In this document: piece by piece, positions 2,252 through 59,958 of the stretch
How the letters are laid out: each line of letters opens with the position of its first letter
Position numbering within the stretch: position 1 is the first letter of the stretch
Source of the DNA: Fodinisporobacter ferrooxydans
GTDB taxonomy: Bacteria > Bacillota > Bacilli > Tumebacillales > MYW30-H2
DNA: 64,000 nucleotides
Direction: 5' to 3'
NCBI RefSeq assembly: GCF_022818495.1
Contig: NZ_CP089291.1
Coordinates: forward strand, 2,683,501-2,747,500
The notes under the pieces: generated by a model
The model's database searches: none
Seen by the model: only the letters and a program-made list of their open reading frames with translations
What the model was told of the DNA's origin: nothing
Made by a program: the position numbers and the translations under genes

Positions 2252-3263
2252 AGCCGGCTGAGGATGCAAAATAGGTCCGGCGGACCTTTCGGCAGTTTTG
2301 GCGAGTCTTCCCAAAAACATGGAAAACCCGAATGTGCTTGTCGGGATCGACACGTCAGATGATGCGGGCATCTATCAATTAACGGAGGATATGGCAATCG
2401 TACAGACCGTCGATTATTTTACACCGGTTGTCGATGATCCCTATCGTTTCGGTCAAATCGCAGCGGCAAACGCACTCAGCGATATTTATGCAATGGGTGG
2501 AAAGCCCATAACGGCTCTGAATGTTGTCGGTTTTCCCATTACAAAACTGGATCCGCAGATTTTATCGGAAATTTTGCGGGGCGGTGCGGATAAAATCCGG
2601 GAAGCGGGCGCCGTGATTATCGGCGGTCATTCTATCGATGACAAAGATCCGAAGTATGGAATTGCCGTTACGGGCATCGTGCATCCACAAAAATACTGGA
2701 CGAATACCGGTGCGAAACCTGGGGATGCCCTGATCCTGACAAAACCGATCGGTGTCGGTATTATTACGACAGCGATCAAACGGGCTATCGTGTCAGAGGA
2801 AGACATAGACCGGGTACAAACAGTCATGGCTGCATTAAACAAAGTGGCTGCAGAAGTGGCAAGCGCATTTACGGTTCACGGATGTACAGATGTCACCGGG
2901 TTTGGCCTTTTGGGTCATGCTTTGGAAATGGCCCGCGGCTCGCAAGTGGGGATTGAAATTGAAGCAAAGCAAGTGCCGGTATTGCCGCGCACTTATGAAT
3001 TTGCCGAGCAGGGAGCAGTTCCCGGCGGTTCAAAGAAAAATATGGCATGGCTGGCAGACAACATCGATTTTGCCGATTCGATTGATGCGATTACGCGGAC
3101 TGTATTTTGCGATGCGATCACATCTGGCGGACTTTTGCTGTCCGTGCCGGCGGATCAGGCGGATGCGCTTGTGGAGAAGCTCCGGCAAGAGGGTGTGGAA
3201 GCTGCTACAGTGATCGGCCGGGTCATCAAAGACAATATCGGGCGGATTGCCGTTCGATCATAA
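2208..3263 (+). CDS. selD: selenide, water dikinase SelD, itself a selenoprotein (in-frame UGA)
   Basis: Makes selenophosphate from selenide and ATP. Read from the ATG at 2208 (AAAGGA at 2195-2200, 7 bases upstream), codon 18 is TGA (2259-2261), inside the motif G-U-G-C-K-I, where E. coli SelD has catalytic Cys17 in GCGCK. Reading through gives 351 residues in perfect frame with the rest of SelD (GIDTSDDAG, TALNVVGFP, IIGGHSIDD, TGFGLLGHALEM). A conventional gene call would start at the TTG at 2298 or later and lose the catalytic residue and the Gly-rich loop. A hairpin of bacterial SECIS type follows the TGA. Family knowledge: Sec-containing SelD occurs in several bacteria and archaea. High confidence in the assignment; UGA decoding itself is inferred. 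Confidence 0.93.
2259..2287 (+). promoter_or_regulatory. candidate bacterial SECIS element for selD
   Basis: The TGA at 2259-2261 is followed, after an 11-base spacer, by a perfect 6-bp stem AGGTCC (2273-2278) / GGACCT (2282-2287) with loop GGC (2279-2281). The G-containing apical loop begins 17 bases after the UGA, the arrangement expected for SelB-dependent recoding in bacteria. The hairpin lies within coding sequence that also has to encode C-K-I-G-P-A-D-L. Confidence 0.7.
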
Positions 3264-7164: not shown

Positions 7165-7480
7165 TATGAAGATCGCTGATATTTGATGATAGGGAAAGTA
7201 CCTGGCGCATTCACTAGCCAGAGAGGAAATGACGAGGCTGTAATCATTTCTCTAGTGGAAACAGGGAAAGACACCCTGGAGAATCTTTTGCGAACCTGTC
7301 ATTTGCTGACTGCTTTGAAGCGGGTTTACAGTCGGCAAGGTACAATCGTAGCAGAAGACGTGGCGCCGGACGTTATTTCGGCAAAAGCGGGACAAATATG
7401 TCCAATTAGGGTGGTACCGCGGGAGACAGATATCTCTCGTCCCTGACAATTGCAGTCGGGGGCGGGGGATTTTTTATTTG
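7165..7480 (+). promoter_or_regulatory. T-box leader of hisS-aspS, overlapping Asp/His specifier
   Basis: Stem I carries the AGTA turn (7198-7201) and the AGAGAGG bulge motif near 7222; the T-box AGGGTGGTACCGCG lies at about 7408-7421, followed by a terminator hairpin (CCCTGAC ... GTCGGGG) and a T-run ending near 7480. In the specifier loop the sequence GACAC (7270-7274) contains GAC (Asp) at 7270-7272 followed by A, and CAC (His) at 7272-7274. Uncharged tRNA binding prevents termination and switches on the synthetases. A TTGACA -35-like hexamer stands at 7127-7132, with no clear -10. Confidence 0.92.
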
Positions 7481-11084: not shown

Positions 11085-11801
11085 TTACAGATCAAGTTCC
11101 TGAGACAATTGATTTGCTTGAAACAACGCTTCGTGTGTTCCTGCATCAATCCACCATCCCTGCAGGATATCGAATGTCAGTTCGTTTTGGCGAATATAAG
11201 CGTTGTTGACGTCCGTAATTTCAAACTCGTTGCGGGTAGACGGTTTTAATGTGTGAATGATGTCAAATACCTGGCAGTCATACATATAGATCCCGGTAAC
11301 AGCGAAGTTGCTTTTAGGGTTCGACGGCTTTTCTTCAATACGTATAATTTTATTTTCTTCCATTTCTGCCACTCCATAGCGTTTCGGATCTTGCACTTGT
11401 TTCAATAATAGCTTGGCGCCTTTCCCTTGTTTTTGAAATGCTCTGACATAAGGGGCGAGTTCATCGGCAAATACATTGTCTCCAAGCAGCACTGTCATCA
11501 GCTGGCCGTTTGCAAAGTCCCTTGCCAGCCCCAACGCCTGTGCGATTCCTCCCGGCTGGTCCTGGACTTTATAACTGAAATTGACATCAAATTCATTTCC
11601 GCTTCCCAATAGCGTGACTATATCTCCCATATGTTCGCGGCCGGTTACGATCAAAATATCCCGAATATCCGCTTTCCGCAATTTATGAATCGCATAATAG
11701 ATCATTGGATATTTCCCGACAGGCAACAGATGTTTGTTCGTGATCTTTGTCAACGGATAGAGGCGGGACCCTGCGCCGCCAGCCAAAATAATTCCTTTCA
11801 T
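11085..11801 (-). CDS. sugar-phosphate nucleotidyltransferase (glucose-1-phosphate thymidylyltransferase type)
   Basis: 238 residues. The N-terminal GIILAGGAGSRLYPLT is the nucleotide-binding signature of the RmlA group, followed by NKHLLPVGKYPMIYY, QDQPGGIAQAL, LLGDNVF and the EEKPSNPKS motif. The family couples a sugar-1-phosphate to dTTP or UTP for cell-surface glycans. At about 240 residues it is the short form without the C-terminal dimer extension, as in spore-coat SpsI-like proteins. The start is the ATG at 11801, supported by CGGGAGG 8 bases upstream; an in-frame ATG 21 codons earlier lacks such a site. It is last in a leftward set with the two surface-protein genes. Confidence 0.85.
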   Translation of the reverse strand: MKGIILAGGAGSRLYPLTKITNKHLLPVGKYPMIYYAIHKLRKADIRDILIVTGREHMGDIVTLLGSGNEFDVNFSYKVQDQPGGIAQALGLARDFANGQLMTVLLGDNVFADELAPYVRAFQKQGKGAKLLLKQVQDPKRYGVAEMEENKIIRIEEKPSNPKSNFAVTGIYMYDCQVFDIIHTLKPSTRNEFEITDVNNAYIRQNELTFDILQGWWIDAGTHEALFQANQLSQELDL

Positions 11802-11933
11802 TCTATATGCCTCCCGTTGGAATTCTGCGGTTTCAGGCGAAGCGGTTTTATGATGGGACTTCAATCATTCATAGATGATGGCAGTATTGATATATGAATC
11901 CTGCTGTTGCATGGTGCGGGCGGTTGTAAGGAA

Positions 11934-12710
11934 TCAGCCGGATTGTGCCTGGTAATACACATCAAAAGATGCATGTTTTCCCGACTCGGCCGAGAGGTAT
12001 GCGATTCTCGAATATTTTAGAAAGCGCAAAGGCGTCAAGATCTTCATTGTTTGCCCGTCGATCGTCATTTCAGAATCCACTGTATAATCCGTATCGTTCG
12101 GACTGATTTCCAGTTGAACAAGCACCGGATTCGGTGAACGATTGATGATGGCATACGAGAATGTGGTTTGGATTGACACATCTTGAGACGGTAAAAGCTG
12201 GGGGAGATCTTCAGACAGCAATCCGGTAAAAACATTTTGTGTAAATGTAACCGGCGGAAATTTGACCTCTCCGGAGAAGATCAGCCGGCCTTCGTCGTCG
12301 GTCATGACAGGCAATTCCGGATTCGATCCAAAAATCGTGATTCCATCCTCGGAGGGATTCAACGGTCTGATATCGACCTGTTGTTCAATCTTTTTCACCT
12401 TTACCTGTTGTTCAATTTTCTTTACCGTAATCGGCTGTTCAATTTTTTTGACTGTAACCGGTTTGGAGATGGATCGCAATGTTCCCGTGTGAGGGGAAGG
12501 TGCGAGAAAAACAGCCAGGATAGAAGGGGTCTTTTTCCTCTTGTTCGGCTCTTTGTTAGATTCTTTATTCGATTCTCTATTCGACTCTTTGCGGCAGCGG
12601 GATTTGCCGCTTGCAGTTTCTTGCTTGCGCCCCTTTGTATGGCTCGTCACCTCATTATGTAGAGGGTGGCGCATCGGCCGTCCTTTGGATCCTTTCAATT
12701 TTTCGGTCAT
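11934..12710 (-). CDS. Lys/Glu-repeat protein with C-terminal domain shared with the 12748-13458 product (DUF6385-like)
   Basis: 258 residues, no signal peptide. Order: a basic N-terminus; four-residue repeats of ESNK type (42-57); three nine-residue repeats of the form V-T-V-K-K-I-E-Q-P/Q (85-111); then a globular beta-rich C-terminal domain (about 118-258). Its last 80 residues align by eye with the C-terminus of the neighbouring repeat protein: SxDxTxxxVD, FxKYxxIxYxA and a terminal Y-Y/T-Q-A. I associate this domain with the Firmicutes family DUF6385, from memory. Strong ribosome site GGGGGTGG. Likely a spore or cell surface protein, given the neighbouring glycosyltransferases; function unknown. 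Confidence 0.75.
   Translation of the reverse strand: MTEKLKGSKGRPMRHPLHNEVTSHTKGRKQETASGKSRCRKESNRESNKESNKEPNKRKKTPSILAVFLAPSPHTGTLRSISKPVTVKKIEQPITVKKIEQQVKVKKIEQQVDIRPLNPSEDGITIFGSNPELPVMTDDEGRLIFSGEVKFPPVTFTQNVFTGLLSEDLPQLLPSQDVSIQTTFSYAIINRSPNPVLVQLEISPNDTDYTVDSEMTIDGQTMKILTPLRFLKYSRIAYLSAESGKHASFDVYYQAQSG
12378..12458 (-). repeat. 27-bp coding repeat, three copies
   Basis: Encodes VTVKKIEQP, ITVKKIEQQ and VKVKKIEQQ in the protein at 11934-12710. An adjacent 12-bp coding repeat (12540-12587) encodes four ESNK-type units. Confidence 0.8.
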
Positions 12711-12747: not shown

Positions 12748-13458
12748 TTATACGTGTGCTTGCGTGTAAATGGTGAGTGCTGCCGTAATCGCTGCTGTCT
12801 GTGCGGCGTACATAATCTGCATATATTTGACAAAATGCCCCGGTGCAAAGAAGTATTGGCCTCCTGCCGCGATCGTCTGTGTCGTGGAAGTCGGATCGAC
12901 GGAGAAGTTCGTACCGTCTGCGCTTAAATAAAGCGTAGCCTGGGCACCGGCTGTTGAACTCGCGTTGTGGACAGTAAAGGTGACCTCACTCAAAGAAATG
13001 GCTGTCAAAATACTGCCGGCGGTGAATGTTGTGCTGCCTGTACTGACTGTTTGCGATGCGTCGACAACCGTTCTGTCGCCAAGTGTTGTCAACAGGCTGG
13101 CAGCCGTCAAGTTCTGCACCTGTGTCAACAGGCTGGCGGCTGTCAGGTTTGACGGCTGAACCAACAAGCTCGCGGCTGTCAGGTTTGATGGCTGCATGAC
13201 AAGACTGGCCGCAGTCAGGTTTTGCGGCTGGACCAGCATGCTGGCGGCTGTCAGGTTTTGCGGCTGGACCAGCATGCTGGCAGCCGTCAGGTTTTGCGGT
13301 TGGACGAGCATGCTGGCGGCTGTCAGGTTTGACGGCTGCATGACAAGGCTGGCCGCAGTCAGGTTTTGCACGGTGGACAATAAGGAAGCGGCATTTGTTT
13401 GCGACACCTGTGTCAATAACTGTGAAGGCACTTCTGAAAAGACTTTAAAATTGGCCAT
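12748..13458 (-). CDS. 12-residue tandem-repeat surface protein with DUF6385-like C-terminal domain
   Basis: 236 residues. After a 19-residue start (MANFKVFSEVPSQ...) comes one degenerate and eight full copies of a 12-residue unit NLTAASxLVQPx (residues 20-127), then a globular domain (about 135-236) paralogous to the C-terminus of the next gene. Every repeat carries an Asn-Leu-Thr sequon and an Ala-Ala-Ser; the regular spacing of small and hydrophobic residues suggests a beta-solenoid or stacked fibre. The layout (short start, repeat stalk, globular end) recalls collagen-like exosporium proteins such as BclA, but there is no Gly-X-Y. No signal peptide, as is usual for spore coat proteins made in the mother cell. 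Ribosome site GAGGGAGG. Role inferred only. Confidence 0.82.
   Translation of the reverse strand: MANFKVFSEVPSQLLTQVSQTNAASLLSTVQNLTAASLVMQPSNLTAASMLVQPQNLTAASMLVQPQNLTAASMLVQPQNLTAASLVMQPSNLTAASLLVQPSNLTAASLLTQVQNLTAASLLTTLGDRTVVDASQTVSTGSTTFTAGSILTAISLSEVTFTVHNASSTAGAQATLYLSADGTNFSVDPTSTTQTIAAGGQYFFAPGHFVKYMQIMYAAQTAAITAALTIYTQAHV
13078..13365 (-). repeat. eight 36-bp coding repeats (NLTAAS units)
   Basis: Eight in-frame 36-bp units encode residues 32-127 of the protein at 12748-13458; a ninth, degenerate unit precedes them. Three central units are identical at protein level (NLTAASMLVQPQ), which suggests recent copy-number change. Confidence 0.92.
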
Positions 13459-13646
13459 AAAAAGACCTCCCTCTAAAATACGGCAAGAATCTGTTCAAAA
13501 AGGTGGACAAGCAGAGTTGGCGCCTTTTCTCTGTCGAACGCTTTTAAACAGCTTCTACTAAAGAAGATATTCAGGAAGGCTTTGCCAGCACATTGATGAT
13601 TGCCTATTTTTGGCAATGCATTTGCCCCTCAAGACACTTGCCTAAA

Positions 13647-13673
13647 ACGAAATATGTGTTTTGGCATAAAATA
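13647..13673 (+). promoter_or_regulatory. candidate sigma-K-type promoter of the glycosyltransferase operon
   Basis: AC at 13647-13648, a 16-base spacer, and CATAAAATA at 13665-13673, which fits the sigma-K pattern AC-N16/17-CATAnnnTA (late mother-cell sigma factor). It lies 30 bases before the first glycosyltransferase ATG. The motif is short, so chance occurrence in A+T-rich DNA is possible. Confidence 0.5.
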
Positions 13674-13702: not shown

Positions 13703-15175
13703 ATGCCGTCTGTTTCGCTGTGCATGATTGTCCGGAATGAAGCAGATTGTTTGCGCGATTGTCTGGAAAGTGTCCAGTCGGTGGTTGATGAGATCATTGT
13801 CGTCGACACCGGATCTACCGATCAGACGTTGGAGATCGCCCGCCAATATGGAGCCTGTTGTTTCCAGGCAGAATGGCAAAACGATTTTGCCAAGATGCGG
13901 AACAGGAGCCTGGAGCATGCGACCAAAGACTACATCCTTGTCCTGGATGCCGATGAACGATTGCTTCCGGAAAGCCGGGAAGAGCTTCGTAAATGTCTCG
14001 AAACGTTTCCAATGGCAGACGGTTTTTTCGTGCACATTTTGAATCAAACGGATGGCGAAGGGATTGAGGAAATGGAAGTATCGCTGAATGTGCGGCTGTT
14101 TCGCAACGAGCCCCGCTACCGTTTTTCCGCCGCCCTGCACGAGCAAATCGCCGAATCGATTCTGCGCGGCCAACCGCCGGGAACGATCTTTGATTCCAAG
14201 ATCCGTATTCTTCACTCGGGCTATTTAAAAAAGAATGTGCAGCAAAAACAAAAAGCGCAGAGAAATTTGGCGATCGCTCTGGAGGAATGCAAGCGCCATC
14301 CCGGTGACGCATTCCGCGCTTTTAATCTGGGGATTGAATACATGCGCCTGCAGCAACTGCCACAAGCCATCGAAGCTTTCGAATTCGCCCGTCAGTGGTG
14401 CAAGCGCGATGCTCTCTGGGTCTCCCGATTTTTCAAGATCTATATTTCTACCTTGATGCAATGTGGAAACTGGGAGCAAGCGAATGTTCTCTTGACGGAA
14501 GCGTTGGCCATCTTTCCGGATTATACGGATTTATATTATCTGCAGGGCGTGTATCATTTTCAACATGGCCAGTGGAATGAAGCGCTGCAAAATTTTGGCC
14601 ATTGCATCCAAATCGGCGATCCGCCGATCCCTCCTTATACTGTCGAAAAGGGGATTTCGACATACCGGCCGTATTTCGCCATGGGGCAAGTATTCCAAAG
14701 CAGCGGGCGGAAGGTAGAAGCGATCGTCGCTTACCGTGAAGCGTTTCAGTTGAATCCCCGTTTTGCGCAGGCGTTTGTGCGCTTCGCCGTGCTGTTGTTG
14801 GCGGAATCAGCCGATGCCGGAACGCTTGCTTATATGGAACAAGTGGCTGCGGCCGCCGGGGAGAATCGCCATGCATGGATCGGGATGGCGCTTGCCGCGG
14901 CGAACCATTTTGTCAAGGCGAAGGAATATTTGGAATCCGTTCCCGATCCGCAACGTGTGGCGGAACAGTTGGCAGTGGTGTATGCATGTCTGAATGAACA
15001 GGAAAAGTTGTTCCGTCTGCTGCAGGACTGCGATCCGCATGGCGCGATCCGGATGCAGGTGCGCAAACATCTGTTAGAGACGGGACAGCGGATTTTGGAA
15101 ACAGGGCTGCAGCGGTTTCCCGAATCAGAAGCCTTGCAGACATTATCTTTGGAATATAAGAAGATGCTGCCATGA
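13703..15175 (+). CDS. family 2 glycosyltransferase with TPR-like C-terminal region (1)
   Basis: 490 residues. The GT-A domain (1-about 190) starts SLCMIVRNEADCLRDCLES and has VDTGSTDQT and the metal-binding LVLDADE. Residues about 200-490 are helical repeats of TPR character (e.g. AFNLGIEYMRLQQLPQAIEAFEFA). The enzymes transfer a sugar from a nucleotide donor; the TPR part probably binds the acceptor protein or a partner. Ribosome site AGAGGGGGAGAGG. It is first of three similar genes joined by ATGA overlaps, consistent with stoichiometric synthesis. Context suggests glycosylation of the repeat proteins encoded divergently. Confidence 0.88.
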   Translation: MPSVSLCMIVRNEADCLRDCLESVQSVVDEIIVVDTGSTDQTLEIARQYGACCFQAEWQNDFAKMRNRSLEHATKDYILVLDADERLLPESREELRKCLETFPMADGFFVHILNQTDGEGIEEMEVSLNVRLFRNEPRYRFSAALHEQIAESILRGQPPGTIFDSKIRILHSGYLKKNVQQKQKAQRNLAIALEECKRHPGDAFRAFNLGIEYMRLQQLPQAIEAFEFARQWCKRDALWVSRFFKIYISTLMQCGNWEQANVLLTEALAIFPDYTDLYYLQGVYHFQHGQWNEALQNFGHCIQIGDPPIPPYTVEKGISTYRPYFAMGQVFQSSGRKVEAIVAYREAFQLNPRFAQAFVRFAVLLLAESADAGTLAYMEQVAAAAGENRHAWIGMALAAANHFVKAKEYLESVPDPQRVAEQLAVVYACLNEQEKLFRLLQDCDPHGAIRMQVRKHLLETGQRILETGLQRFPESEALQTLSLEYKKMLP

Positions 15176-16590
15176 ACAGAATCAGTCTATGCATGATCGT
15201 GCGCAATGAGGCCAAGACGATTGCAGCATGTCTGGAAAGTGCGCGGAAGGCTGTCGATGAAATCATCATCGTCGATACTGGTTCGACTGACGGCACCGTA
15301 GAGCTTTGCCGTTCCTTTGAAGCGGACATTTACCACTATGACTGGTGCGATGATTTTGCCAAGGCGCGCAACTACGGGTTGGAACGTGCGACAGGCGACT
15401 GGATTCTCATGCTGGATGCCGATGATGAACTGAATGTCCAGGATCGCCAAACCATTCGCCTGCTGACGGAGGGTGAGCAAACCGATGCATATTTCTTTCT
15501 GACCGAAAATTGGGTCGGTGACAGCAGCGATCCGTCCATTTTAAACTACGCGCAACTGCGTTTGTTTCGCAACCGCCCGGATTTCCGCTATCAAGGCGCC
15601 ATTCATGAAATGATTCCGGCTATTTCGAACGCTCGCTGCAAGTATGTGCCGATCAAGATCATCCACCGCGGGTATTTGGATACGCTTGTGCAAGAGCGGC
15701 AAAAGATAAGCCGGAATGTGGCGATATTGCGAAAAGAATTGGCTTGCTGTCCGGATGATCCGGCGCTCCTGTACTATTTGGGCAATGAGATGCTGAGGAT
15801 GGGCCAGATGGAGGAAGCCGCCGACTTTTATGAACAAGCGCTCAAGCAGTCTCGGTGTGACGGCGAGCAGCGACGCTGCTTTCTGCCCGAATTGCCGACG
15901 AAATATGCGTACTGCCTGTGGAAGCGGGAGCAAGGGGAAAAAGCGCTGCAAGTGCTGCAGGAAGCGCAGGCGCATGCTCCAAAACACACAGATTTATGGT
16001 TTTTGCTAGGCAATATTTTGTTCGAAAACGGTGATCTGGAAGGAGCATGTACGGCTTTTGCAACGTGTCTCTCAATGGGCGAGGCGCCGCCGGAATATCC
16101 GTCACAGGCCGGGTGCGGTTCCTTTCAGGCGGCATTCTTCTTGGGACTCATTGCCCTTGAACAAAGAAATATGGAATTGGCGCAGCGGCATTTCCAGGCG
16201 GCCCTCCGGATGAATCCACAGCATCTTCCGTCCATTACCCAACTCTGTACATGCTTTTGGATTCAGGGGAAATATGATCAAGTACGAGGCATGTTGGATC
16301 GCGTATCATCGCCGGTTAAAGATATGGATTGGACCCGATTTCTTGCGATACTGAACCAAGTGATCGACTCCGGGCGGGTCGATCCGGAAGTCTGCACCCA
16401 ATCAAACGTACCAGCTTTTTTCAATTGTATGGCTGCATTGGCTGCCTTTCATAAAACCGATACCGTTGCCGCACTGCTTTGCCAGCTTCCGCACCGGTTG
16501 TTGGATGTGGCCATGCAAGAACAGTGGTTTTATGAGGCAATGGGAAGATATTGGCTCCGTGCGGCTGTGTGTTTGGAGAGATCAAAATGA
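15172..16590 (+). CDS. family 2 glycosyltransferase with TPR-like C-terminal region (2)
   Basis: 472 residues, paralogue of the preceding product: NRISLCMIVRNEAKT start, VDTGSTDGT, and the acidic DAxD-type motif LMLDADDE, then TPR-like helices from about residue 195 (LYYLGNEMLRMGQMEEAADFYEQAL; LWFLLGNILFENGDLEGA). It starts inside the previous stop (ATGA at 15172) and its own stop overlaps the third gene. The donor and acceptor sugars cannot be told from sequence. Confidence 0.88.
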   Translation: MNRISLCMIVRNEAKTIAACLESARKAVDEIIIVDTGSTDGTVELCRSFEADIYHYDWCDDFAKARNYGLERATGDWILMLDADDELNVQDRQTIRLLTEGEQTDAYFFLTENWVGDSSDPSILNYAQLRLFRNRPDFRYQGAIHEMIPAISNARCKYVPIKIIHRGYLDTLVQERQKISRNVAILRKELACCPDDPALLYYLGNEMLRMGQMEEAADFYEQALKQSRCDGEQRRCFLPELPTKYAYCLWKREQGEKALQVLQEAQAHAPKHTDLWFLLGNILFENGDLEGACTAFATCLSMGEAPPEYPSQAGCGSFQAAFFLGLIALEQRNMELAQRHFQAALRMNPQHLPSITQLCTCFWIQGKYDQVRGMLDRVSSPVKDMDWTRFLAILNQVIDSGRVDPEVCTQSNVPAFFNCMAALAAFHKTDTVAALLCQLPHRLLDVAMQEQWFYEAMGRYWLRAAVCLERSK

Positions 16591-17588
16591 CGGTAACAGC
16601 TTGTTTGATTGTCCGGGATGAAGCCGAGTTGTTGGAGGTGTGTATCAGAAGCATTCATGGATTCACAAAGGACGTGGTGGTTGTCGACACCGGTTCGCTT
16701 GACGACAGTCCGGATATTGCGAAGCGGCTGGGCTGCACGGTGTTTCATTTGCCGTGGCAGGATGATTTCAGCGCAGCCCGCAATTTCGCAATCGAACATG
16801 CGACTGGAGAATGGGTGTTGTGTATCGACGCTGATGAACGGATCGAGCTTGCGTGCAGCCGTGATGATGTACACCGGATGCTTGAAACGACCACCTGCCA
16901 GGCGTTTACAGCCGAAGTCCACAGCTATCTCGGTCAGCGCCGGAATTCGGACTTCGTATTTCAAGATCAGCGAGTGGTGTTATTTCGCAGGGATCCCTTG
17001 GTGCGCTTTCGGCGCAGAGTCCACGAAGACGTGACGGAAAGCCTTTCTCTCCGTTATGGAGAGAGCCTTGCGATTGGCAAACTTCCGCTCGTCGTTTGCC
17101 ACTTGGGTTATCTGGATACGATCGTCGAAAAACGGCAAAAACGGGAGCGCAATATACGGCTTTTGCAGATGGAGATCGCGGAACATGGATCGTCGCCATG
17201 GATCGAGTACTGTCTGGGTACGGAACGGGCGGGAAATGAACAATGGGATCAAGCGCTCCCCCTCTTGGAACACGTCGTTTACAGCGGAACCGGAGAGGAA
17301 CGGTTCTGGCTGCCGGCAGCCTATGCGCTGGCATGTTGTTACTTGAAACTGGAAAGAGGGGAAGATTGCAGTACCATTTGCAGCATGGCGATTGTGCATG
17401 ATCATGACATGCACTTTCATTTTTCTCTTCTTCAATCGGAGGCCCGTTTCGCGAATAAAAATTCCCTCGCTGCGTTGCTGGATGGGGAAGTCTGTCATTC
17501 GTTGCAGTCGGAGCAAGACGTTTTCGCCTTTTCCGCCCGTTATCTGGTTTTGTTCCGACAGCTTTGGCAGAAGAGCGGATCGACATGA
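16587..17588 (+). CDS. family 2 glycosyltransferase, shorter paralogue (3)
   Basis: 333 residues from the ATG overlapping the previous stop; GGAGAG lies 6 bases upstream. The GT-A core has TACLIVRDEAELLEVC, VDTGSLDDSP and CIDADERIEL; the helical C-terminal region (about 195-333) is shorter than in the two preceding paralogues. Same presumed role in protein or glycan glycosylation; acts in the cytoplasm, with no membrane segment. Confidence 0.87.
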   Translation: MTVTACLIVRDEAELLEVCIRSIHGFTKDVVVVDTGSLDDSPDIAKRLGCTVFHLPWQDDFSAARNFAIEHATGEWVLCIDADERIELACSRDDVHRMLETTTCQAFTAEVHSYLGQRRNSDFVFQDQRVVLFRRDPLVRFRRRVHEDVTESLSLRYGESLAIGKLPLVVCHLGYLDTIVEKRQKRERNIRLLQMEIAEHGSSPWIEYCLGTERAGNEQWDQALPLLEHVVYSGTGEERFWLPAAYALACCYLKLERGEDCSTICSMAIVHDHDMHFHFSLLQSEARFANKNSLAALLDGEVCHSLQSEQDVFAFSARYLVLFRQLWQKSGST

Positions 17589-17998
17589 CGAATCGAATCG
17601 TAACGGATATCCTGTTCATTCGGCTGCAAGCAAGTCTTTTCTGCAGAAACATTCAAAACGAAGCTGACGGACTATCATTCATTGGCCTGTTATCGCAAAT
17701 GGAACGGCAGCATCCAACCCCGTTCTATATCGTGCATGAATGGCTTTGTTCAAGGAATCAACCGATTGTTTGCCGTGAAGAGATTCAACTGGTGAATCCG
17801 GATGGGCGGGTGGAAGCACATGTGCAGATGTCACCCTTTACGCTGGGAACATGTTTTTGGGACAGAATTCGCATCTACTGGGAGGTAACCGATTTTCATC
17901 CGGACTGTACGGGGATCTTCGAGATTCGTACACGTCTGTTCGAAGTTGAAACAGAAAAGTTGTTGTACTTTCAGACAGATCCGCTTTGGGTCGTATAG
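17585..17998 (+). CDS. unknown 137-residue protein in the glycosyltransferase operon
   Basis: Starts within the previous stop (ATGA at 17585). The sequence alternates short hydrophobic and polar strands (TDILFIRLQASLFC, FYIVHEWLCS, FEIRTRLFEV) and looks all-beta, without signal peptide or membrane segment. A Trp-rich centre (FWDRIRIYWEVTDF) is notable. I do not recognise the family; the tight coupling to three glycosyltransferases suggests a role in the same process. Confidence 0.75.
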   Translation: MTNRIVTDILFIRLQASLFCRNIQNEADGLSFIGLLSQMERQHPTPFYIVHEWLCSRNQPIVCREEIQLVNPDGRVEAHVQMSPFTLGTCFWDRIRIYWEVTDFHPDCTGIFEIRTRLFEVETEKLLYFQTDPLWVV

Positions 17999-18017
17999 TC
18001 AGGAGGGGATCAGGCGG

Positions 18018-19418
18018 ATGGCCACAGGGCGGATCACCGGCAAAAAAGCAAGCTTGACCAGCATCATTATTCCAACATGCAACAAATGGGAGTATACAAA
18101 GCAATGTCTGGAAAGCATCCGACAATTTACCGATGCCCCTTATGAGCTGATTGTCGTCGACAATGGATCACAGGATGTGACAGTACAAGAATTGCGCCGC
18201 ATGGAGGATGTTTTCCTGATTGAAAATAACGCCAATTTGGGATTCCCGCGGGCATGCAATCAAGGGATGGCCCAAGCAAAAGGCGACCAATTGCTCATCC
18301 TGAACAATGATATTGTGGTCAGCCGTCAGTGGTTGTCCAACATGCTCCATTGTTTAAATGGCGATCCCCGCAACGGTGCAGTCGGACCGGTGACCAACTA
18401 TATATCGGGTGTGCAGGCGCGACCTGTCGGCTACAGTTCCCTTGCGGAGTATTTCGAATTTGTCAAGGATTATAACCATTCCGATCCTGCGAAGTGGTTT
18501 TGCACACTCAGGCTGGTTGGATTTTGCTTGCTCATCCGGCGGGACGTTTACGAAAAGGTGGGCGGATTTGACGAACGGTTCGGGAAAGGAAACTTTGAGG
18601 ATGACGATTACTGCATGCGCATGCGGCGCGCGGGCTACCGTCTGGTTGTAGCCGCAGACACGTATATACATCATTACGGCAGTGTCACGAACCGCATGGA
18701 TCCGGAATATGCCCAGCTGTTGGAAACCAATCGCCTGCAATTTGTAAGCAAATGGGGTATCGATCCATTGCAAATGTTACAGTATCATGACGCTCTCGCC
18801 GCATTTCTTCCACCGGCGGATCGGATACTGGACGCCGCCTGCGGGGGTGGAGGCCTTGGCTTGAATTTGAAAAATAAAGGCATGCCGTTCGTTGCCGGAA
18901 TCGAAAGCGATGCGTTGTTGGCAGTCGATGCACGTACGGTTCTCGATGAAGTATGGGTTGGTGATGCGGAAACGATTCGGCTGCCATATCCGGGCGGATG
19001 GTTTGATGCCATACTCCTGGCAGATGCGCTTTTGCATTTTGCCAATCCTAAAGCGGCGCTGGCACATTTGGCGACATATCTAAAACAAGGCGGATATGTG
19101 GTCGCATCCATTTCCAATGCCACCTATGTCGGCGTGATCAAGAAACTGTTGGAAGGAAACGGAATGCGTCTGGAGCTTGGCAGGCAATACAACGGCAACT
19201 CAGCGCTCCTTTCTCTGGATGAGATCATATGGCTGTTCGAACAGGCCGGATTGCAAATCGAGACCATCGGCGGGATGCAAGAAATGGATGACAAATTGGA
19301 AATCATGGTTCATGAATTGCTGCAGCTTCGAGAACGCCTGGGGCTTGGGGAGTTGGTTCCTTCGGCGCTGGATCAATGGAAGACGAAGCAATATTATATT
19401 CGTGCGATTAAGAGATAA
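18018..19418 (+). CDS. fusion of family 2 glycosyltransferase and SAM-dependent methyltransferase
   Basis: 466 residues. The N-terminal GT-A domain (about 10-250) has TSIIIPTCNKWEYTKQCL, VDNGSQD, LILNNDIVV and the GGFDERFGKGNFEDDDYC acceptor-site motif typical of rhamnosyl-type transferases. The C-terminal domain (about 265-460) is a class I methyltransferase: ILDAACGGGGLGLNLK binds SAM, then ILLADALLHFANP. The bifunctional layout suggests addition of a sugar and methylation of the glycan. Start chosen at the ATG with AGGAGGGG 9 bases upstream. Confidence 0.88.
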   Translation: MATGRITGKKASLTSIIIPTCNKWEYTKQCLESIRQFTDAPYELIVVDNGSQDVTVQELRRMEDVFLIENNANLGFPRACNQGMAQAKGDQLLILNNDIVVSRQWLSNMLHCLNGDPRNGAVGPVTNYISGVQARPVGYSSLAEYFEFVKDYNHSDPAKWFCTLRLVGFCLLIRRDVYEKVGGFDERFGKGNFEDDDYCMRMRRAGYRLVVAADTYIHHYGSVTNRMDPEYAQLLETNRLQFVSKWGIDPLQMLQYHDALAAFLPPADRILDAACGGGGLGLNLKNKGMPFVAGIESDALLAVDARTVLDEVWVGDAETIRLPYPGGWFDAILLADALLHFANPKAALAHLATYLKQGGYVVASISNATYVGVIKKLLEGNGMRLELGRQYNGNSALLSLDEIIWLFEQAGLQIETIGGMQEMDDKLEIMVHELLQLRERLGLGELVPSALDQWKTKQYYIRAIKR

Positions 19419-19562
19419 GGCACCGCTTAAGAAGCCTTGTGAGAGTCACATTTGACATGTACACCGTATATATTGCACAGATGGGATAATCCAAAGAAAC
19501 GGGAGCTCGAAGGATTGCAAAATGTTGCTGCATCCTGTAAGAAGTTTAAAGGAGACCGTCGG

Positions 19563-21266
19563 ATGGACGAACATAAAGTTCTGTTTGTTACATGTGTCAA
19601 TAATGAGGAAATGTATCGAAATTGTATGAACCATTTGCGCGGGTTAATGATTCCCGAAGGCTTCAAAGTGGACGTATTGCCGATCCGGGATGCCGAAAGC
19701 ATGACAAAAGCATATAACACAGCCATGCGGTCGTCAGATGCCAAATATAAAGTTTACCTGCACCAGGATACTTTTATCATCCATAAATTCTTTATCCATG
19801 ATGTCATTGCATTGTTTCAGAATGAGCCGGCGCTTGGCCTTTTAGGTATGGTTGGCTGCAAAAAACTTCCCCCAAATGGTGTTTGGTGGGAAGGCAAGAA
19901 CTTGGTGGGCAAGGTTATCGAGCATCGCAATACGTATCGTGTATTAAAATTTGAGGATGCCGACGAACCCTTCAGTTCCGTCGAAGCGATCGACGGCCTG
20001 TTAATGGCTGCACAGTATGATGTTCCATGGCGTGAAGATCTGTTTCAAGGATTTCATTTTTATGATACTTCGCAATCGCTGGAATTCCACAAACATGGCT
20101 GCTTGGTTGGGGTTCCTGCACAAGCCGAAGCTTGGTGTATCCACGATTGCGGCAATGAATTCGATGTAAATCGTTATCAGCACGATCGGAGTGTCTTTAT
20201 TAAAAACTATACGCAGGTATCGGATTCTACCCGATCATCCGACGATATTGCAACATCGATCCCAACTGTTTCCAATGAAGCGGATGATGAACCAATCAAG
20301 GACGAACAACCGCCGAATCAGCCGGGAGATGCGAAACAGGAAGATCCGATTCTGATTTATGAGTCCCCTTTGGTCAGCGTGTTAATACCAACATATAACA
20401 GACCGCACTATTTGGAACTTGCAGTACAAAGCGTTCTTATGCAAACGTACAAAAAGATTGAAATCATTATTACCGACAATAGCACGAATCTTGAGTCACA
20501 GGCAAGACTTGCCCCATACTTGGAAAAACACCCGCAAATCAAGTATGTCAAAAATGAGCGGGATCTCGGTTACGTGGAGAACTGTCAGCGGGGGTTTGCA
20601 TTAGCATCCGGAGACTACATCAATTATCTTATGGACGATGATCTCTTTTGCAGAGAAAAAATAGAAAAAATGCTGTCATTTTATTTGCAGCATGCTGATA
20701 TCACACTTGTAACATCGTATCGACAATTGATGGACGAAGCCGGAAATCCGCTTGCGCCAATCGCTGCAACCAGGAAATTATTTGAAGAAACGGCAATGCT
20801 GGATGGAAAGGTGTTAGGGAACTTCGTACTTTCGAACTGTCTGAATGTGATTGGCGAACCGACAACAGTACTGTTTAGAAGAAAAGACCTCGAAAGGTTT
20901 GGAGCTTACAAAGGAAAATCATACAAAATGCTGATCGATGTCGCTTCCTGGATGTCCCTCTTATCGAAAGGCAATGCCGTTTATATTTCGGAAACCTTAA
21001 GCCAATTCAGACTTCATTCGAATCAAAGTCAAAAGTCAATTTCCACGAGTGTATCCGCGATCCAGGAATGGCTGGATCTAATCAGAGATGCCAGAGCTGA
21101 AGGTTTTCTGGATCATGATACAGCATATAAAACGGCCCTCAATCAATATTTGACACATTGCAGCCAAATCATCCAACAGGCGATTCATTCCAATGACTGC
21201 AGCATTTTAAAAACAAACCGGGTCGGCGAAATTCTAGGCAGTTGTATTGCCGAGATTGTCGGGTGA
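19563..21266 (+). CDS. two-domain glycosyltransferase (StrF-like domain plus GT2)
   Basis: 567 residues. Residues 1-about 215 resemble the Glyco_tranf_2_5 / StrF group ([42 protein letters not shown]); an acidic, Pro-rich linker (about 225-265) joins a second, canonical GT2 domain ([36 protein letters not shown]). Start at ATG 19563, where AAAGGAG sits 8 bases upstream; an earlier in-frame ATG at 19452 lacks a site. Two catalytic domains suggest addition of two residues in sequence. The TGATG junction couples it to rfbH. Confidence 0.85.
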
Positions 21267-22597
21267 TGAACATGAACAGAACCGCAATGGAGATTCGGCA
21301 AAAAATTCTGGAACTTGCACGTCAATATTATCGCGAAAACTGGCCAAAACGTTCCTTTCGTCCTGGAACAGACCACATTCCTGTAAGCGGGAAAGTGTTT
21401 GATGATGATGAGGTGGCCCACCTTGTAGAAGCATCTCTTGATTTTTGGCTGACGACCGGACGGTATGCGGATGAATTTGAAAAAGAGTTTGCACGTTTTA
21501 TGGGCAGACGTTACGCGATTTTGACCAATTCCGGATCCAGCGCCAATTTACTTGCCCTTAGCGCCCTTACATCTGAACAATTAGGAAAACGAAGATTGCT
21601 GCCGGGTGATGAGGTGATTACGGTCGCAGCGGGATTTCCGACTACAGTAAACCCGATTCTGCAAAATCAACTGGTTCCCGTTTTTTTGGATGTCAAGATC
21701 CCAACTTACAACATTGACACAAGTGTATTGGAAACGGCGGTTGGCGAGCGCACAAAGGCGATCATGCTCGCTCACACGCTGGGCAATCCTTTTCATCTGG
21801 ATGAAGTAAAACGCGTCGCGGAGAAATACCATTTATGGTTGATCGAAGACACGTGTGATGCTGTCGGCGCCAAATACCGTGGACAAATGGCCGGTACCTT
21901 TGGCGATCTGGCCACCGTGAGTTTTTATCCCGCACATCATATCACAATGGGTGAAGGAGGAGCCGTACTTACTTCCCATCCGCTCTTGAAACGGATCGTA
22001 GAGTCTTTCCGCGATTGGGGACGTGATTGCTGGTGCGAACCCGGCAAAGATAATACATGCGGAAAACGATTCGGCTGGCAGTTGGGTGATTTGCCGTATG
22101 GATATGACCACAAATATACGTATAGCCATATTGGCTATAATCTCAAATTGACGGATATGCAAGCGGCGGTAGGAGTGGCTCAACTCAAGAAACTTCCTGC
22201 ATTTGTTACAAAGCGTCGGGAAAATTACATGTTTTTGCGTAAGGCGCTGATTCAACTGGAAGATGTCTTGATCTTGCCGGAAGATACGCCCGATAGTGAA
22301 CCGAGTTACTTCGGATTTCCAGTTACTTTGCGCGAAGCTGCTCCAATTTCCCGAAATCAGCTTGTACAACGATTGGATCAGCATAAAATCGGAACGCGCC
22401 TTCTTTTCGGAGGAAATCTTTTGCGTCAACCTGCCTACAAAAATATTCCGCACCGCGTTGTGGGCGAACTGTCCAATACAGACCGGATCATGAATCAGAC
22501 GTTTTGGATCGGCATCTATCCCGGTTTGACGCGCGACATGCTTCAGTATATGGCCGGTATTCTATATCAGATTTTTGGGAGAGAGGGTCGCTTATGA
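21266..22597 (+). CDS. rfbH: CDP-4-keto-6-deoxy-D-glucose-3-dehydrase RfbH (E1)
   Basis: 443 residues, the family length. This PMP- and [2Fe-2S]-dependent enzyme removes the C3 hydroxyl in 3,6-dideoxyhexose synthesis. The aminotransferase fold is visible ([27 protein letters not shown]), but the usual PLP lysine is replaced by His in [14 protein letters not shown], the hallmark of this dehydrase. Cysteines [12 protein letters not shown] form the iron-sulfur site. It needs an electron-transferring reductase (E3, AscD/DdhD type), which is not encoded in the window. The start is one of two ATGs (21266 or 21272) at the previous stop. Confidence 0.93.
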
Positions 22598-23388
22598 AAG
22601 TGGTAATCCTCGCCGGTGGATTTGGAACAAGAATCAGTGAAGAATCCCACCTGAAGCCAAAGCCAATGATCGAAATCGGTGAAAACCCTATTTTGTGGCA
22701 TATTATGAAGATCTATTCTCATTATGGATTCCATGATTTCATCATTTGTTTGGGATATAAAGGAAATGTTATTAAGGAATATTTTTCAAATTATTACCTG
22801 CATGCAGCAGATGTTACCTTCAATTTTCAAAAACCGGATAAAAGAATGATCCATCACTATTCGGCCGAACCTTGGAGTGTTACATTGGCAGATACCGGGA
22901 AAGAGACCATGACAGGCGGCCGTGTGAAACAGATTCGAAAGTATGTAGGAAATGAGCCGTTTATGCTTACTTATGGAGATGGAGTAGCGGATGTCAATAT
23001 ACTAGAATTGGCCGAATACCATCGCTCTCACGGGAAACTTGCCACAATCACGGCTGCACAACCGCCCGGACGCTTTGGAGCGTTGCGTATAACTGAAGAT
23101 AGCAGGGTGGAGAAATTTGAGGAAAAGGTAAAAGGTGACGGCGGGTGGGTAAATGCTGGGTTCTTCGTATTCCAGCCGGAGATTTTTGACTATATCGAGG
23201 GAAGCGGCACAATTTTAGAAAAAGAGCCTTTGGAAAACCTTGCGAATCACGGACAACTGATTGCCTATAAACATTCCGGCTTTTGGCAGCCCATGGATAC
23301 ACTGCGCGACAAAATATACCTGGAAGAATTGTGGAAAACAGGAAAAGCGCCTTGGAAAAAATGGGAGGAAAAAATGATTCACGAGTAA
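22594..23388 (+). CDS. rfbF: glucose-1-phosphate cytidylyltransferase
   Basis: 264 residues. Makes CDP-glucose from CTP and glucose-1-phosphate, the entry step of CDP-dideoxysugar synthesis. Signature [46 protein letters not shown] and [11 protein letters not shown] identify the RfbF/AscA/DdhA group. ATG overlaps the rfbH stop (ATGA), with GGGAGAGAGGG just upstream. The downstream gene follows after 17 bases. Confidence 0.95.
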
Positions 23389-23405
23389 GGAAGAGATGAT
23401 CAACC

Positions 23406-24497
23406 ATGTTGGACGTTGATTTCTGGAAAAATAAAAATGTATTGGTTACAGGCCACACAGGGTTCAAGGGTTCGTGGTTGTGTTTATGGCTCCATGCTTT
23501 AGGTGCGAAAGTCACAGGTTATGCGCTATCTCCACCATCCCGCCCAAATGTATTCCAGTTATGTGAAATTGGCGATCTCGTCACTTCTGTGATTGACGAT
23601 ATAAGAAATAAACAGAGATTGCAAGCAATCGTATCGGAAAAGAGTCCGGAAATTATCATTCATCTGGCAGCACAGCCACTCGTCCAGGAATCCTATCACG
23701 ATCCCGCAGAAACATACGAAATTAATGCCATGGGCACAGTGTATTTGTTTGAGGCAATCAGACATTCAGCAAGGGAAGGAAAAGGTGCAAAAGCGGTAGT
23801 GAATGTCACAAGCGACAAATGCTACAAAGACCAAGAGTGGATTTGGGGTTACCGGGAAAATGACCCGCTCGGTGGATTTGATCCGTATTCGAACAGCAAA
23901 GCCTGTTCAGAGTTGATAACCGCTTCCTATCGAAACTCTTTCTTTCACCACGATGATTTTGCCGTACATGGCGTGGCGCTTGCTTCTGCCAGAGCGGGAA
24001 ATGTGATCGGCGGCGGGGACTTTGCCGCATTGCGTTTGGTTCCGGATTGCATGCGTTCGCTCTTAAAGCACGAACCCATTACGATTCGAAATCCTGCAGC
24101 TGTAAGGCCCTGGCAACATGTGCTTGAGCCGCTTGGCGGGTACCTGATGCTGGCGCAAAAGTTATATGAGTGCGGCACCCAATTTGCGGAAGAATGGAAT
24201 TTTGGGCCAAATGACAATGATGCCAGAACGGTTGAATGGGTAGTCGGGAAAATATGCGAAAAATGGGGTTCTGATGCGATCTATGAAATCGACCAGAATC
24301 AGCATCCGCATGAGACACATTACTTGACATTGGATTGTTCAAAGGCAAAAACGAAATTGGGTTGGCACCCTGTATGGAATCTGGAGCAAGCCATCGATAA
24401 AGTGATCGAGTGGACACGAGCATATCGTGAAAATCACAATATCAGACATGTATGTTTAAAACAAATGGAGGATTACATGAACTGTTTTGACCAATAG
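23406..24497 (+). CDS. rfbG: CDP-glucose 4,6-dehydratase
   Basis: 363 residues, an extended short-chain dehydrogenase/reductase that forms CDP-4-keto-6-deoxyglucose. The NAD-binding start VLVTGHTGFKGSWL is the version typical of RfbG; the active site has the TSDKCYKDQEWIWGYREND stretch and YSNSKAC (YxxxK). GNVIGGGDFA and VRPWQHVLEP are family motifs. It works between RfbF and RfbH. Confidence 0.95.
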   Translation: MLDVDFWKNKNVLVTGHTGFKGSWLCLWLHALGAKVTGYALSPPSRPNVFQLCEIGDLVTSVIDDIRNKQRLQAIVSEKSPEIIIHLAAQPLVQESYHDPAETYEINAMGTVYLFEAIRHSAREGKGAKAVVNVTSDKCYKDQEWIWGYRENDPLGGFDPYSNSKACSELITASYRNSFFHHDDFAVHGVALASARAGNVIGGGDFAALRLVPDCMRSLLKHEPITIRNPAAVRPWQHVLEPLGGYLMLAQKLYECGTQFAEEWNFGPNDNDARTVEWVVGKICEKWGSDAIYEIDQNQHPHETHYLTLDCSKAKTKLGWHPVWNLEQAIDKVIEWTRAYRENHNIRHVCLKQMEDYMNCFDQ

Positions 24498-24552
24498 GAA
24501 AATGTTTCATACAGTAAGATGCAGGGATTCATCGTGAAGGGGCAGTGTCGTC

Positions 24553-25116
24553 ATGCAATTGCATAAAACCCGAATTCCCGGCTGTTTTACAATACAACCG
24601 TTGCTGTTTAAAGATGAACGAGGCGTCTTCGTCAAAACATTTCGTTCCGATGTTTTTGCGGAAAATCATTTGGAAACCCATTTTCCGGAGCAATATTATT
24701 CAATTTCCCGGCAAGGAGTTTTGCGAGGATTGCATTTTCAGATTCCTCCCAGAGAGCATACAAAGCTCGTGTATTGTGTATCCGGCAAAGTCATGGATGT
24801 CATCGTGGATCTGCGAAGGGGTTCACCAGCGTTTGGAAATTTTGAGGTGTTTGAGTTATCTGCAGAAGAAGGCAATATGATTTATATCCCTCCAGGATTG
24901 GCACACGGTTTTTATGTAACAAGCGAGCGCGCGATTTTAGTCTACAACGTTTCCTCTTTGTACTCTCCGGAACACGATTGCGGGATTCATTGGCGTTCGA
25001 TCGATTTGCCATGGCCGAATCAAAACCCTATTCTTTCGGAAAGAGATGGCGCCTTTCCACATGTATCGAATTTTTCCAGTCCATTTTCATTCGAGGGTGG
25101 TGAAAAAGGAAAATGA
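24553..25116 (+). CDS. dTDP-4-dehydrorhamnose 3,5-epimerase family protein (probable CDP-sugar epimerase)
   Basis: 187 residues, cupin fold of the RmlC family: RDERGVFVKTFR-like start, GVLRGLHFQIPP, KLVYCVSGKVMDVIVDLRRGSPAFG and PPGLAHGFYV. In a CDP-dideoxysugar operon the matching role is the C5 epimerase of ascarylose synthesis (AscE type), which gives the L-configuration; pathways to abequose, paratose or tyvelose do not need it. GAAGGGG lies 11 bases before the ATG. The stop overlaps the reductase start. The substrate is inferred from context. Confidence 0.85.
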   Translation: MQLHKTRIPGCFTIQPLLFKDERGVFVKTFRSDVFAENHLETHFPEQYYSISRQGVLRGLHFQIPPREHTKLVYCVSGKVMDVIVDLRRGSPAFGNFEVFELSAEEGNMIYIPPGLAHGFYVTSERAILVYNVSSLYSPEHDCGIHWRSIDLPWPNQNPILSERDGAFPHVSNFSSPFSFEGGEKGK

Positions 25117-26012
25117 TGCCGCCGACAGCGATCGTTACAGGTGGGACCGGCTTTGTCGGGTCATATTTGGTGAGGCGTTTGGTTGCTGACGGGTGGAATG
25201 TACATAGCATCGTCCGCCCGGAGTCAAAACTTTTGCTTTTGCAAGACATATTGGATCGTATAACTCTGCACGTTCACGACGGCTCGACAAATCACATGCT
25301 TCAAATTTTAAAAATGGCGAAACCTGCGGTTGTTTTTCATTTGGCATCCTTATTTCTTGCTCAACACGAGCCAAAGGATATTGAACCGATGATGCAAAGC
25401 AATCTTATGTTTGGCACGCAACTTGTTGAAGCCATGGTCGCAAATGGTGTGTCCCGGTTGATTAATACCGGAACCTCGTGGCAACATTACGAAAATAAAG
25501 AGTATAGTCCGGTTTGTCTCTATGCTGCAACAAAGCAGGCGTTTCAAAACATTTTACAATTCTATACAGAAGCGACTCCTTTAAAAGTCATTACGTTAAA
25601 ATTGTTTGATACGTATGGTGCTGGGGATCCGAGACCCAAATTGTTTTCCGTCTTGCGAAAACATTCCAAGCAACTTGAACCATTGTCCATGTCGCCTGGG
25701 GAACAGTTCATGGATCTTGTCTATATTGATGATGTCGTGACAGCTTTTATTTTAGCTGCCCGGCGTATACAAAATGAGGATGGCAAAGCAAATGAAGAGT
25801 TTGCGGTGTCTTCCGGCCATAGGATTCAGTTAAAGCATTTGGTCGAAACGTATCGTCGTGTCGTGGGAAAACCATTGCAAATCCAATGGGGTGTACGTCC
25901 TTACCGCTTTCGTGAGGTTATGGCGCCTTGGAATACAGGGCAGCGGTTGCCCGGCTGGGAACCAATGATGCAACTGGAAGAGGGCATTCGAAGAATGGAA
26001 GGAATGGAATAA
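25113..26012 (+). CDS. NAD-dependent epimerase/dehydratase, probable final 4-reductase
   Basis: 299 residues, extended SDR: AIVTGGTGFVGSYL for NAD(P) binding, and YAATKQA (YxxxK) as catalytic pair. As last gene of the CDP-sugar set it most likely reduces the 4-keto group (AscF/RfbJ role) to give the finished CDP-3,6-dideoxyhexose. The ATG overlaps the epimerase stop. A transferase specific for the product should be among the upstream glycosyltransferases. Confidence 0.83.
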   Translation: MMPPTAIVTGGTGFVGSYLVRRLVADGWNVHSIVRPESKLLLLQDILDRITLHVHDGSTNHMLQILKMAKPAVVFHLASLFLAQHEPKDIEPMMQSNLMFGTQLVEAMVANGVSRLINTGTSWQHYENKEYSPVCLYAATKQAFQNILQFYTEATPLKVITLKLFDTYGAGDPRPKLFSVLRKHSKQLEPLSMSPGEQFMDLVYIDDVVTAFILAARRIQNEDGKANEEFAVSSGHRIQLKHLVETYRRVVGKPLQIQWGVRPYRFREVMAPWNTGQRLPGWEPMMQLEEGIRRMEGME

Positions 26013-31986: not shown

Positions 31987-32046
31987 CGCATGTCACCTGC
32001 CCTCGCCTTGAAATCCAACAACGAAATTCAATAAAAACCAATCGCT

Positions 32047-32280
32047 TCACTTAAGCATCCCGGATATGGCGTCATTAACCGGTTGATAGATGATTGTAAG
32101 CCAATCAAGAGGATTCGGAATCTTGATCTGCAAACTTTCCATGATATTGAGTCCCGTTCCAAAGAAAAGCAGCAGCAAAAACACCCAGAGTTCCTTTTTC
32201 CATTGGTTTTTCAGAAATTTTGGAACTTCGATCACAACAATGATGGCAACGACTAGCAGGATTCCTGCACTCATCAGCAT
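32047..32280 (-). CDS. small two-helix membrane protein of the germination operon (D-subunit-like)
   Basis: 77 residues with two hydrophobic stretches (about 3-18 and 31-44) separated by a short basic loop (KFLKNQWKKE). Small genes of this size and topology accompany some Bacillus germinant-receptor operons and have been called D subunits, which modulate receptor output; this is unrelated to lipoprotein GerD. It is placed between gerC (6-base gap) and gerB. Confidence 0.75.
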   Translation of the reverse strand: MLMSAGILLVVAIIVVIEVPKFLKNQWKKELWVFLLLLFFGTGLNIMESLQIKIPNPLDWLTIIYQPVNDAISGMLK

Positions 32281-32286
32281 GGTGCG

Positions 32287-33486: not shown

Positions 33487-33534
33487 GTATGCTCTACACC
33501 CCTCCTGAACGGTTCTCCTATAGTATTATTGGCC

Positions 33535-35121: not shown

Positions 35122-35249
35122 AAACTGTGAACCCACTTCCTTTTCCTGCAATCAGTCATGCCTTAATATACGCAAAATGGATAATTTATACTCGATAGAC
35201 TTTTTTATTTTTTGCTTTATCAGCAATAAAAAATGATTTGGAAAGAGAA

Positions 35250-59887: not shown

Positions 59888-59958
59888 GGATTGTTTGATT
59901 GCCTGTAGCAATCTATCTATACGGCAATTTTGCGGAATGCGGAAAGGAAGCGCAGGAT

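What the first reader, a model, noticed from the sequence alone, without database searches (positions are those of the whole stretch)
12748..13458. NLTAAS 12-residue repeat protein, a possible new spore or cell surface fibre
Eight near-identical 12-residue units each with an Asn-Leu-Thr sequon and Ala-Ala-Ser form a stalk before a globular domain shared with the adjacent gene. Divergent glycosyltransferases and a sugar-nucleotide pathway are beside it. The layout resembles collagen-like exosporium proteins but with a different repeat, and the sequons could be glycosylation sites.
Basis: partly seen in the sequence, partly recalled or inferred. Interest (0 to 1): 0.68.

Follow-up and report, generated by a model that had tools for sequence, protein, structure and literature searches.

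The report
Glycosylated repeat-stalk spore fibre pair
The gene encodes a 12-residue-repeat stalk with a beta-sandwich head of unknown function, found in the genomes sampled only in spore-formers and usually beside protein-sugar-adding enzymes, so it is probably one half of a two-part sugar-coated fibre on the bacterial spore surface.

Summary
In detail: the ORF at 12748-13458 (minus) has exactly eight NLTAAS 12-mers followed by a head domain, Pfam DUF6385, also present in the adjacent gene. DUF6385 has no assigned function and no paper in the held library names it. It usually comes as two paralogues per genome: a repeat-stalk protein and a basic-tailed partner. All 47 DUF6385-bearing genomes in a 399-genome class sample are SpoIVA-positive. 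In 29 of 36 loci the genes lie beside GT2+TPR enzymes whose nearest solved relatives are protein glycosyltransferases (GmaR, SunS). Three of the four such enzymes in this genome sit here. The C. difficile pair SgtA/BclA3 is a published precedent. O-glycosylation is the better reading. Models of two divergent heads place four solved S-/L-type endospore-appendage (Ena) entries among the top PDB matches, tied with other jelly rolls. Best explanation: an O-glycosylated spore-surface fibre, BclA-like or ENA-like in logic but in neither family. Location, trimerisation and polymerisation are inferred, not shown.

The parts
12748..13458 (-). repeat-stalk DUF6385 protein (REP), 236 aa, no Cys; no signal peptide or membrane segment by eye
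13423..13458 (-). conserved N-terminal segment MANFKVFSEVPS (K-V-F invariant in 13 of 13 12-mer-type homologues); candidate anchor or hook
   Evidence: alignment A2
13078..13365 (-). eight 12-residue repeats NLTAASxxxQPx; in register with [ST]xx[ST]xL in homologues
12751..13071 (-). globular beta-sandwich head, residues 130-236 (Pfam DUF6385 match at 155-235)
11934..12710 (-). partner DUF6385 protein (PART), 258 aa: basic N-terminus, 9-residue VxVKKIEQP-type repeats, IFGSxx..TDxxG motif, DUF6385 head
13703..15175 (+). GT2+TPR glycosyltransferase; nearest solved relative GmaR (E 3e-33), then SunS
15172..16590 (+). GT2+TPR glycosyltransferase; nearest solved relative GmaR (E 6e-38), then SunS
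16584..17588 (+). third GT2 of the same subfamily, no TPR found by Pfam; nearest solved relative GmaR (E 1e-32)
13647..13673 (+). sigma-K-like site AC-N16-CATAAAATA upstream of the GT operon
   Evidence: 4 of 75 GT upstream regions against 0.4 expected; none in 34 REP upstream regions
17946..19418 (+). GT2 fused to a methyltransferase
19452..21266 (+). double GT2 glycosyltransferase
21242..26012 (+). CDP-sugar genes: RfbH, glucose-1-phosphate cytidylyltransferase, CDP-glucose 4,6-dehydratase, RmlC-like epimerase, SDR (3,6-dideoxyhexose-type pathway)
11085..11864 (-). RmlA-like glucose-1-phosphate thymidylyltransferase (below the equivalog cut-off)

Best explanation
The gene is the stalk subunit of a two-gene DUF6385 spore-surface fibre system. 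Shown by computation: the tandem repeats, the DUF6385 head, the conserved REP+PART pairing, the linkage to GT2+TPR genes, and the restriction to spore-formers in the sample. Inferred: the protein is made in the mother-cell cytoplasm; the neighbouring GmaR/SgtA-like enzymes put O-linked sugars on the Ser/Thr ([ST]xx[ST]) positions of the repeats there, later GTs extend them with the CDP-sugar made by the adjacent pathway, and the protein then joins the spore surface as a stalk (probably an oligomer, with repeat number setting the length) crowned by a jelly-roll head. The partner, with the same head on a basic tail, is the likely anchor or base. Step likelihoods: O-glycosylation by the adjacent GTs about 0.75; spore-surface location about 0.7; oligomeric fibrous stalk about 0.55; head-to-tail polymerisation into a pilus about 0.3.
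For: Spore link: 47 of 47 DUF6385-bearing genomes are SpoIVA-positive, against 266 of 399 overall (Fisher p 1e-9 by genome, 0.008 by genus); relatedness inflates the first figure. GT link: GT2+TPR neighbours in 29 of 36 loci (18 of 20, 11 of 16); only four members of this GT subfamily in the whole genome, three of them here; top solved relatives are the protein glycosyltransferases GmaR and SunS. Precedent: SgtA, GT-A plus TPR, encoded next to bclA3, adds beta-O-GlcNAc to Thr in spore-surface collagen-repeat peptides in vitro (PMC7157674); GmaR glycosylates flagellin (PMC9638930). Pair: head tree shows 2 changes between REP and PART types against a shuffled mean of 22. Length variation: 3, 5, 6, 8, 8, 11 and 14 NLTAxS units in this gene and its complete close relatives. 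Register [ST]xx[ST]xL kept across relatives while the sequon is not. Head fold: Ena1B, Ena2A, Ena3A and Ena1C in the top lists for two divergent heads, Z 8.8-11.2 (Foldseek).
Against: No proteomic, microscopic or expression evidence. No sigma-K site enrichment upstream of REP genes (0 full sites in 34). The repeat region has pLDDT below 50 in the monomer model, so a folded stalk is not shown. Jelly rolls unrelated to spores (PirA, XepA, GOLD domains) score as high as Ena. Seven of 36 loci lack a GT2+TPR neighbour (L036, L044, L072, L073, L074, L075, L078; L072 ends at the contig edge). The GT2+TPR substrate could be another protein.
Confidence: 0.6

Rival explanations
1. ENA-like pilus: REP subunits polymerise head-to-tail, the N-terminal KVF segment docking on the head of the next subunit, and the partner is the anchor that presents the first head, as in F-ENA/F-Anchor.
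For: Two paralogues sharing one head domain parallel F-ENA (short) plus F-Anchor (long), which also sit as adjacent pairs (PMC11952670). N-terminus conserved across all 12-mer types. Variable neck length is a known F-ENA trait. Head fold resembles Ena.
Against: No sequence relation to DUF4183 (hhalign probability 0.2%) and only a weak one to Enas (7.7%). The N-terminus does not follow the F-ENA hook motif. No Cys, so no ENA-type disulfides. Multimers could not be modelled.
Confidence: 0.3
2. Vegetative cell-surface or S-layer-associated glycoprotein, not spore specific.
For: Surface glycoproteins with repeats are common, and the fourth GT2+TPR of this genome lies in a region with predicted secreted proteins.
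Against: No signal peptide, SLH, sortase or membrane segment recognisable in REP; found only in SpoIVA-positive genomes in the sample.
Confidence: 0.15
3. The first reader's N-glycosylated sequon fibre.
For: Eight NLT sequons exist and are kept in the closest NLTAAS relatives.
Against: No STT3 oligosaccharyltransferase and no GT41 in the complete genome (controls rang in known carriers). Homologues with the same repeat register lack the sequon.
Confidence: 0.04
4. Prophage tail fibre or exported phage-derived protein.
For: The head shares the jelly-roll fold with predicted phage proteins.
Against: No match in 50,697 phage records, none confirmed in IMG/VR by pattern search, and no phage genes seen beside it; neighbours are housekeeping and sugar genes.
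Confidence: 0.03

Closest known systems
DUF6385 (Pfam PF19912)
   Same: Both window genes are members above the gathering cut-off.
   Different: It is the family itself. It has no assigned function, no solved structure was found by sequence, and no paper in the held library names it.
BclA-type collagen-like exosporium glycoproteins, including C. difficile BclA3 with SgtA
   Same: Tandem-repeat stalk, and a neighbouring GT-A plus TPR glycosyltransferase (BclA3); N-terminal segment and C-terminal jelly-roll head (BclA).
   Different: Repeat is a 12-mer NLTAASxxxQPx, not GXY; head is DUF6385, not BclA-C; no exosporium leader family hit.
F-ENA endospore appendages (DUF4183 with F-Anchor)
   Same: Adjacent pair sharing one head domain; conserved N-terminal segment; neck of variable length; putative O-glycan density reported on F-ENA-4.
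   Different: DUF4183 absent from this genome and unrelated to DUF6385 by profile; hook motif differs; stalk is repetitive.
S-/L-ENA (Ena1-3, PF13157)
   Same: Predicted head fold matches Ena1B/2A/3A/1C.
   Different: No Pfam match, no CC connector, no Cys at all; profile similarity weak.
GmaR / SunS / SgtA protein glycosyltransferases
   Same: The three adjacent GTs are sequence relatives of GmaR and SunS; two have GT2 then TPR.
   Different: Substrate and sugar donor unknown; GmaR also has an antirepressor domain.

Membership tests
DUF6385 (PF19912) | match above the curated cut-off | tested here: met
   54.7 and 94.4 bits against 26.8
BclA-type collagen-like exosporium proteins | GXY collagen repeats | tested here: not met
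   repeat is NLTAASxxxQPx; no Pfam collagen match
BclA-type collagen-like exosporium proteins | BclA-C/C1q head domain | tested here: not met
   Pfam head is DUF6385 only
BclA-type collagen-like exosporium proteins | exosporium leader peptide | tested here: not met
   no NCBIfam leader match
BclA-type collagen-like exosporium proteins | trimer on the spore surface | not testable with these tools
   no multimer modelling, no proteomics
F-ENA | DUF4183 domain | tested here: not met
F-ENA | hook motif M-P-psi-psi-polar-P-aromatic | tested here: not met
   N-terminus is MANFKVF; motif
F-ENA | C3 polymer | not testable with these tools
   needs EM
S-/L-ENA (PF13157) | Enas domain by sequence | tested here: not met
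   no Pfam hit; hhalign 7.7%
S-/L-ENA (PF13157) | cysteine N-terminal connector | tested here: not met
   zero Cys in REP
S-/L-ENA (PF13157) | Ena jelly-roll fold | tested here: inconclusive
   four Ena entries in the top lists for both models, but tied with unrelated jelly rolls
GmaR/SgtA-type protein O-glycosyltransferases (13703, 15172) | N-terminal GT2 related to GmaR followed by TPRs | tested here: met
GmaR/SgtA-type protein O-glycosyltransferases (13703, 15172) | transfers a sugar to Ser/Thr of a protein | not testable with these tools
   needs an in vitro assay

The most novel reading that the evidence does not exclude
DUF6385 pairs build a further class of endospore appendage, beside S-, L- and F-ENA: an O-glycosylated fibre made of ENA-fold heads on lineage-specific repeat stalks whose length evolves by unit gain and loss, with a head-sharing anchor and its own GT2+TPR glycosylation enzymes, widespread in Bacilli.
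Probability: 0.3. Interest if true: 0.75.

Novelty: new variant of a known kind. Interest (0 to 1): 0.55.

Why it matters
It gives a testable function to an uncharacterised Pfam family found in about one in eight genomes of the class sample (47 of 399), and suggests that some spore-formers without the known ENA domains dress their spores with a different glycosylated repeat fibre. The conserved linkage of substrate and GmaR/SgtA-like enzymes would also extend dedicated spore-surface O-glycosylation well beyond C. difficile, and the variable repeat number offers a natural length polymorphism that can be tied to spore adhesion.

Tried and rejected
N-glycosylation. Phage origin: no relative in phage records or IMG/VR. 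Homology to F-ENA DUF4183 by profile: none. Homology to Enas by profile: weak, not claimed. Solved homologue by sequence: none. A sigma-K promoter for REP: a first count of -10-like sites with uncorrected starts looked enriched (11 against 4), but with corrected starts it was not (0 full sites in 34); only the GT operon has a good site. A monomer model of the repeats gave no confident fold, nor did a GTIT-type relative, so no stalk structure is claimed. Record annotation near the Paenibacillus cellulosilyticus DUF6385 hit was empty. The antisense ORF 13196-13561 (+) looks like a by-product of the repeat and was not treated as a gene.

Full report
Observation. The ORF at 12748-13458 (minus) encodes 236 residues with eight NLTAAS units at exact 12-residue spacing, confirmed by Tandem Repeats Finder and far beyond shuffled sequence (73 period-12 matches against a shuffle maximum of 24). 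Units differ at DNA level (mean identity 71%). The repeats hold no charged residue and the protein no Cys. Reading the sequence, I see no signal peptide or membrane segment; no predictor was available.

What the head is. Pfam assigns DUF6385 to this protein and to the adjacent 258-aa protein. NCBIfam has no significant hit for either. No paper in the held library contains the word DUF6385 and no solved structure matches by sequence.

A two-part system. The genome has just these two DUF6385 genes, and most positive genomes in larger samples also have two, usually close together. One is a repeat-stalk type (REP) and one carries a basic N-terminus (PART). A tree of the head domains keeps the two types apart with 2 changes against 22 in shuffles, so the pair is old and maintained. 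Repeats differ by lineage: 12-mers in this group, GTITSVLGATITAGTL-like units elsewhere.

Repeat evolution. The closest relatives, in Sulfoacidibacillus, an Alicyclobacillaceae isolate and metagenome bins (titles), carry NLTAAS arrays of 3 to 14 units with unit variants largely homogenised within a gene (the within- versus between-gene difference is modest, 0.79 against 0.73). In more distant 12-mer relatives the register [ST]xx[ST]xL is kept, but the Asn sequon is absent in L051, L052, L073, L074, L075 and L076 (L076 has only two recognisable units); L050 keeps an unrelated N-Q-S sequon.

Glycosyltransferases. Directly divergent from REP lie two GT2+TPR genes and a third GT2. Their top solved relatives are GmaR, which glycosylates flagellin (PMC9638930), and SunS, a peptide glycosyltransferase. 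Only four such genes were found in this genome, three of them here. The same linkage is seen in 18 of 20 loci and 11 of 16, and in the nearest relatives the gene order is the same. The published precedent is C. difficile SgtA, GT-A followed by four TPRs, encoded next to bclA3 and shown in vitro to add beta-O-GlcNAc to Thr of collagen-repeat peptides (PMC7157674). Downstream genes form a CDP-sugar pathway of the 3,6-dideoxyhexose type. The step from linkage to modification of REP is inference.

Why not N-glycosylation. No STT3 and no GT41 were found in the complete genome, while both searches rang in control genomes that carry them.

Spore link. All 47 DUF6385-positive genomes in the class sample are among the 266 SpoIVA-positive of 399. 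Fisher p is 1e-9 per genome, but relatedness inflates this; the per-genus figure is 0.008. A sigma-K-like site stands before the GT operon (13647-13673) and such sites are over-represented before GT genes (4 against 0.4 expected in 75), but none was found before 34 REP genes. The spore location is therefore likely, not shown.

Fold. AlphaFold2 gives a confident beta-sandwich head at residues 130-236 and no confidence for the repeats. For this head and for that of a divergent GTIT-type relative, four solved S-/L-type Ena entries (Ena1B, Ena2A, Ena3A, Ena1C) are among the top PDB matches, Z 8.8 to 11.2. PirA, XepA and GOLD domains score equally, so this shows a jelly roll of Ena type, not kinship. 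Profile comparison with Enas is weak and with DUF4183 absent; DUF4183 is not in this genome, nor are Enas.

Mechanism. Two readings remain. In the BclA-like one, the N-terminus fixes a glycosylated stalk to the spore and the head faces out. In the ENA-like one, the N-terminal segment docks on the next head and the partner is the base; that the partner has the same head, as F-Anchor has the F-ENA head (PMC11952670), favours this reading somewhat but does not establish it.

Verdict. Real, a member of an uncharacterised but widespread family, probably an O-glycosylated spore-surface fibre of a variant kind.

Noticed in passing
window 2190-2420 (+): The selD gene (listed ORF 2298-3263) appears to start upstream and read through an in-frame TGA in the motif AGUGCKIGP, next to selA (821-2251), so SelD is probably a selenoprotein here.
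   Followed up: partly
window 30880-35151 (-): A GerA/GerB/GerC-type spore germination receptor operon lies a few kb beyond the sugar cluster.
   Followed up: partly
window 12376-12463: The partner gene has its own 27-bp repeat encoding VxVKKIEQP-like 9-residue units, a second stalk-like repeat in the pair.
   Followed up: partly
L149 9005-10480 and 15055-17475: The fourth GT2+TPR gene of the genome lies in a region with predicted secreted proteins, among them an 806-aa protein with a copper amine oxidase N-terminal domain; it may glycosylate a different surface protein.
   Followed up: partly
window 7177-7447 (+): T-box leader upstream of the histidyl-tRNA synthetase-like gene at 7538.
   Followed up: no
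window 60475-60772 (-): 5' ureB sRNA family match antisense to the urease gene at 59899-62040.
   Followed up: no
L033, L037, L038: In one group the partner is reduced to about 102 aa, little more than the head (MFR...), and is encoded divergently from REP.
   Followed up: no
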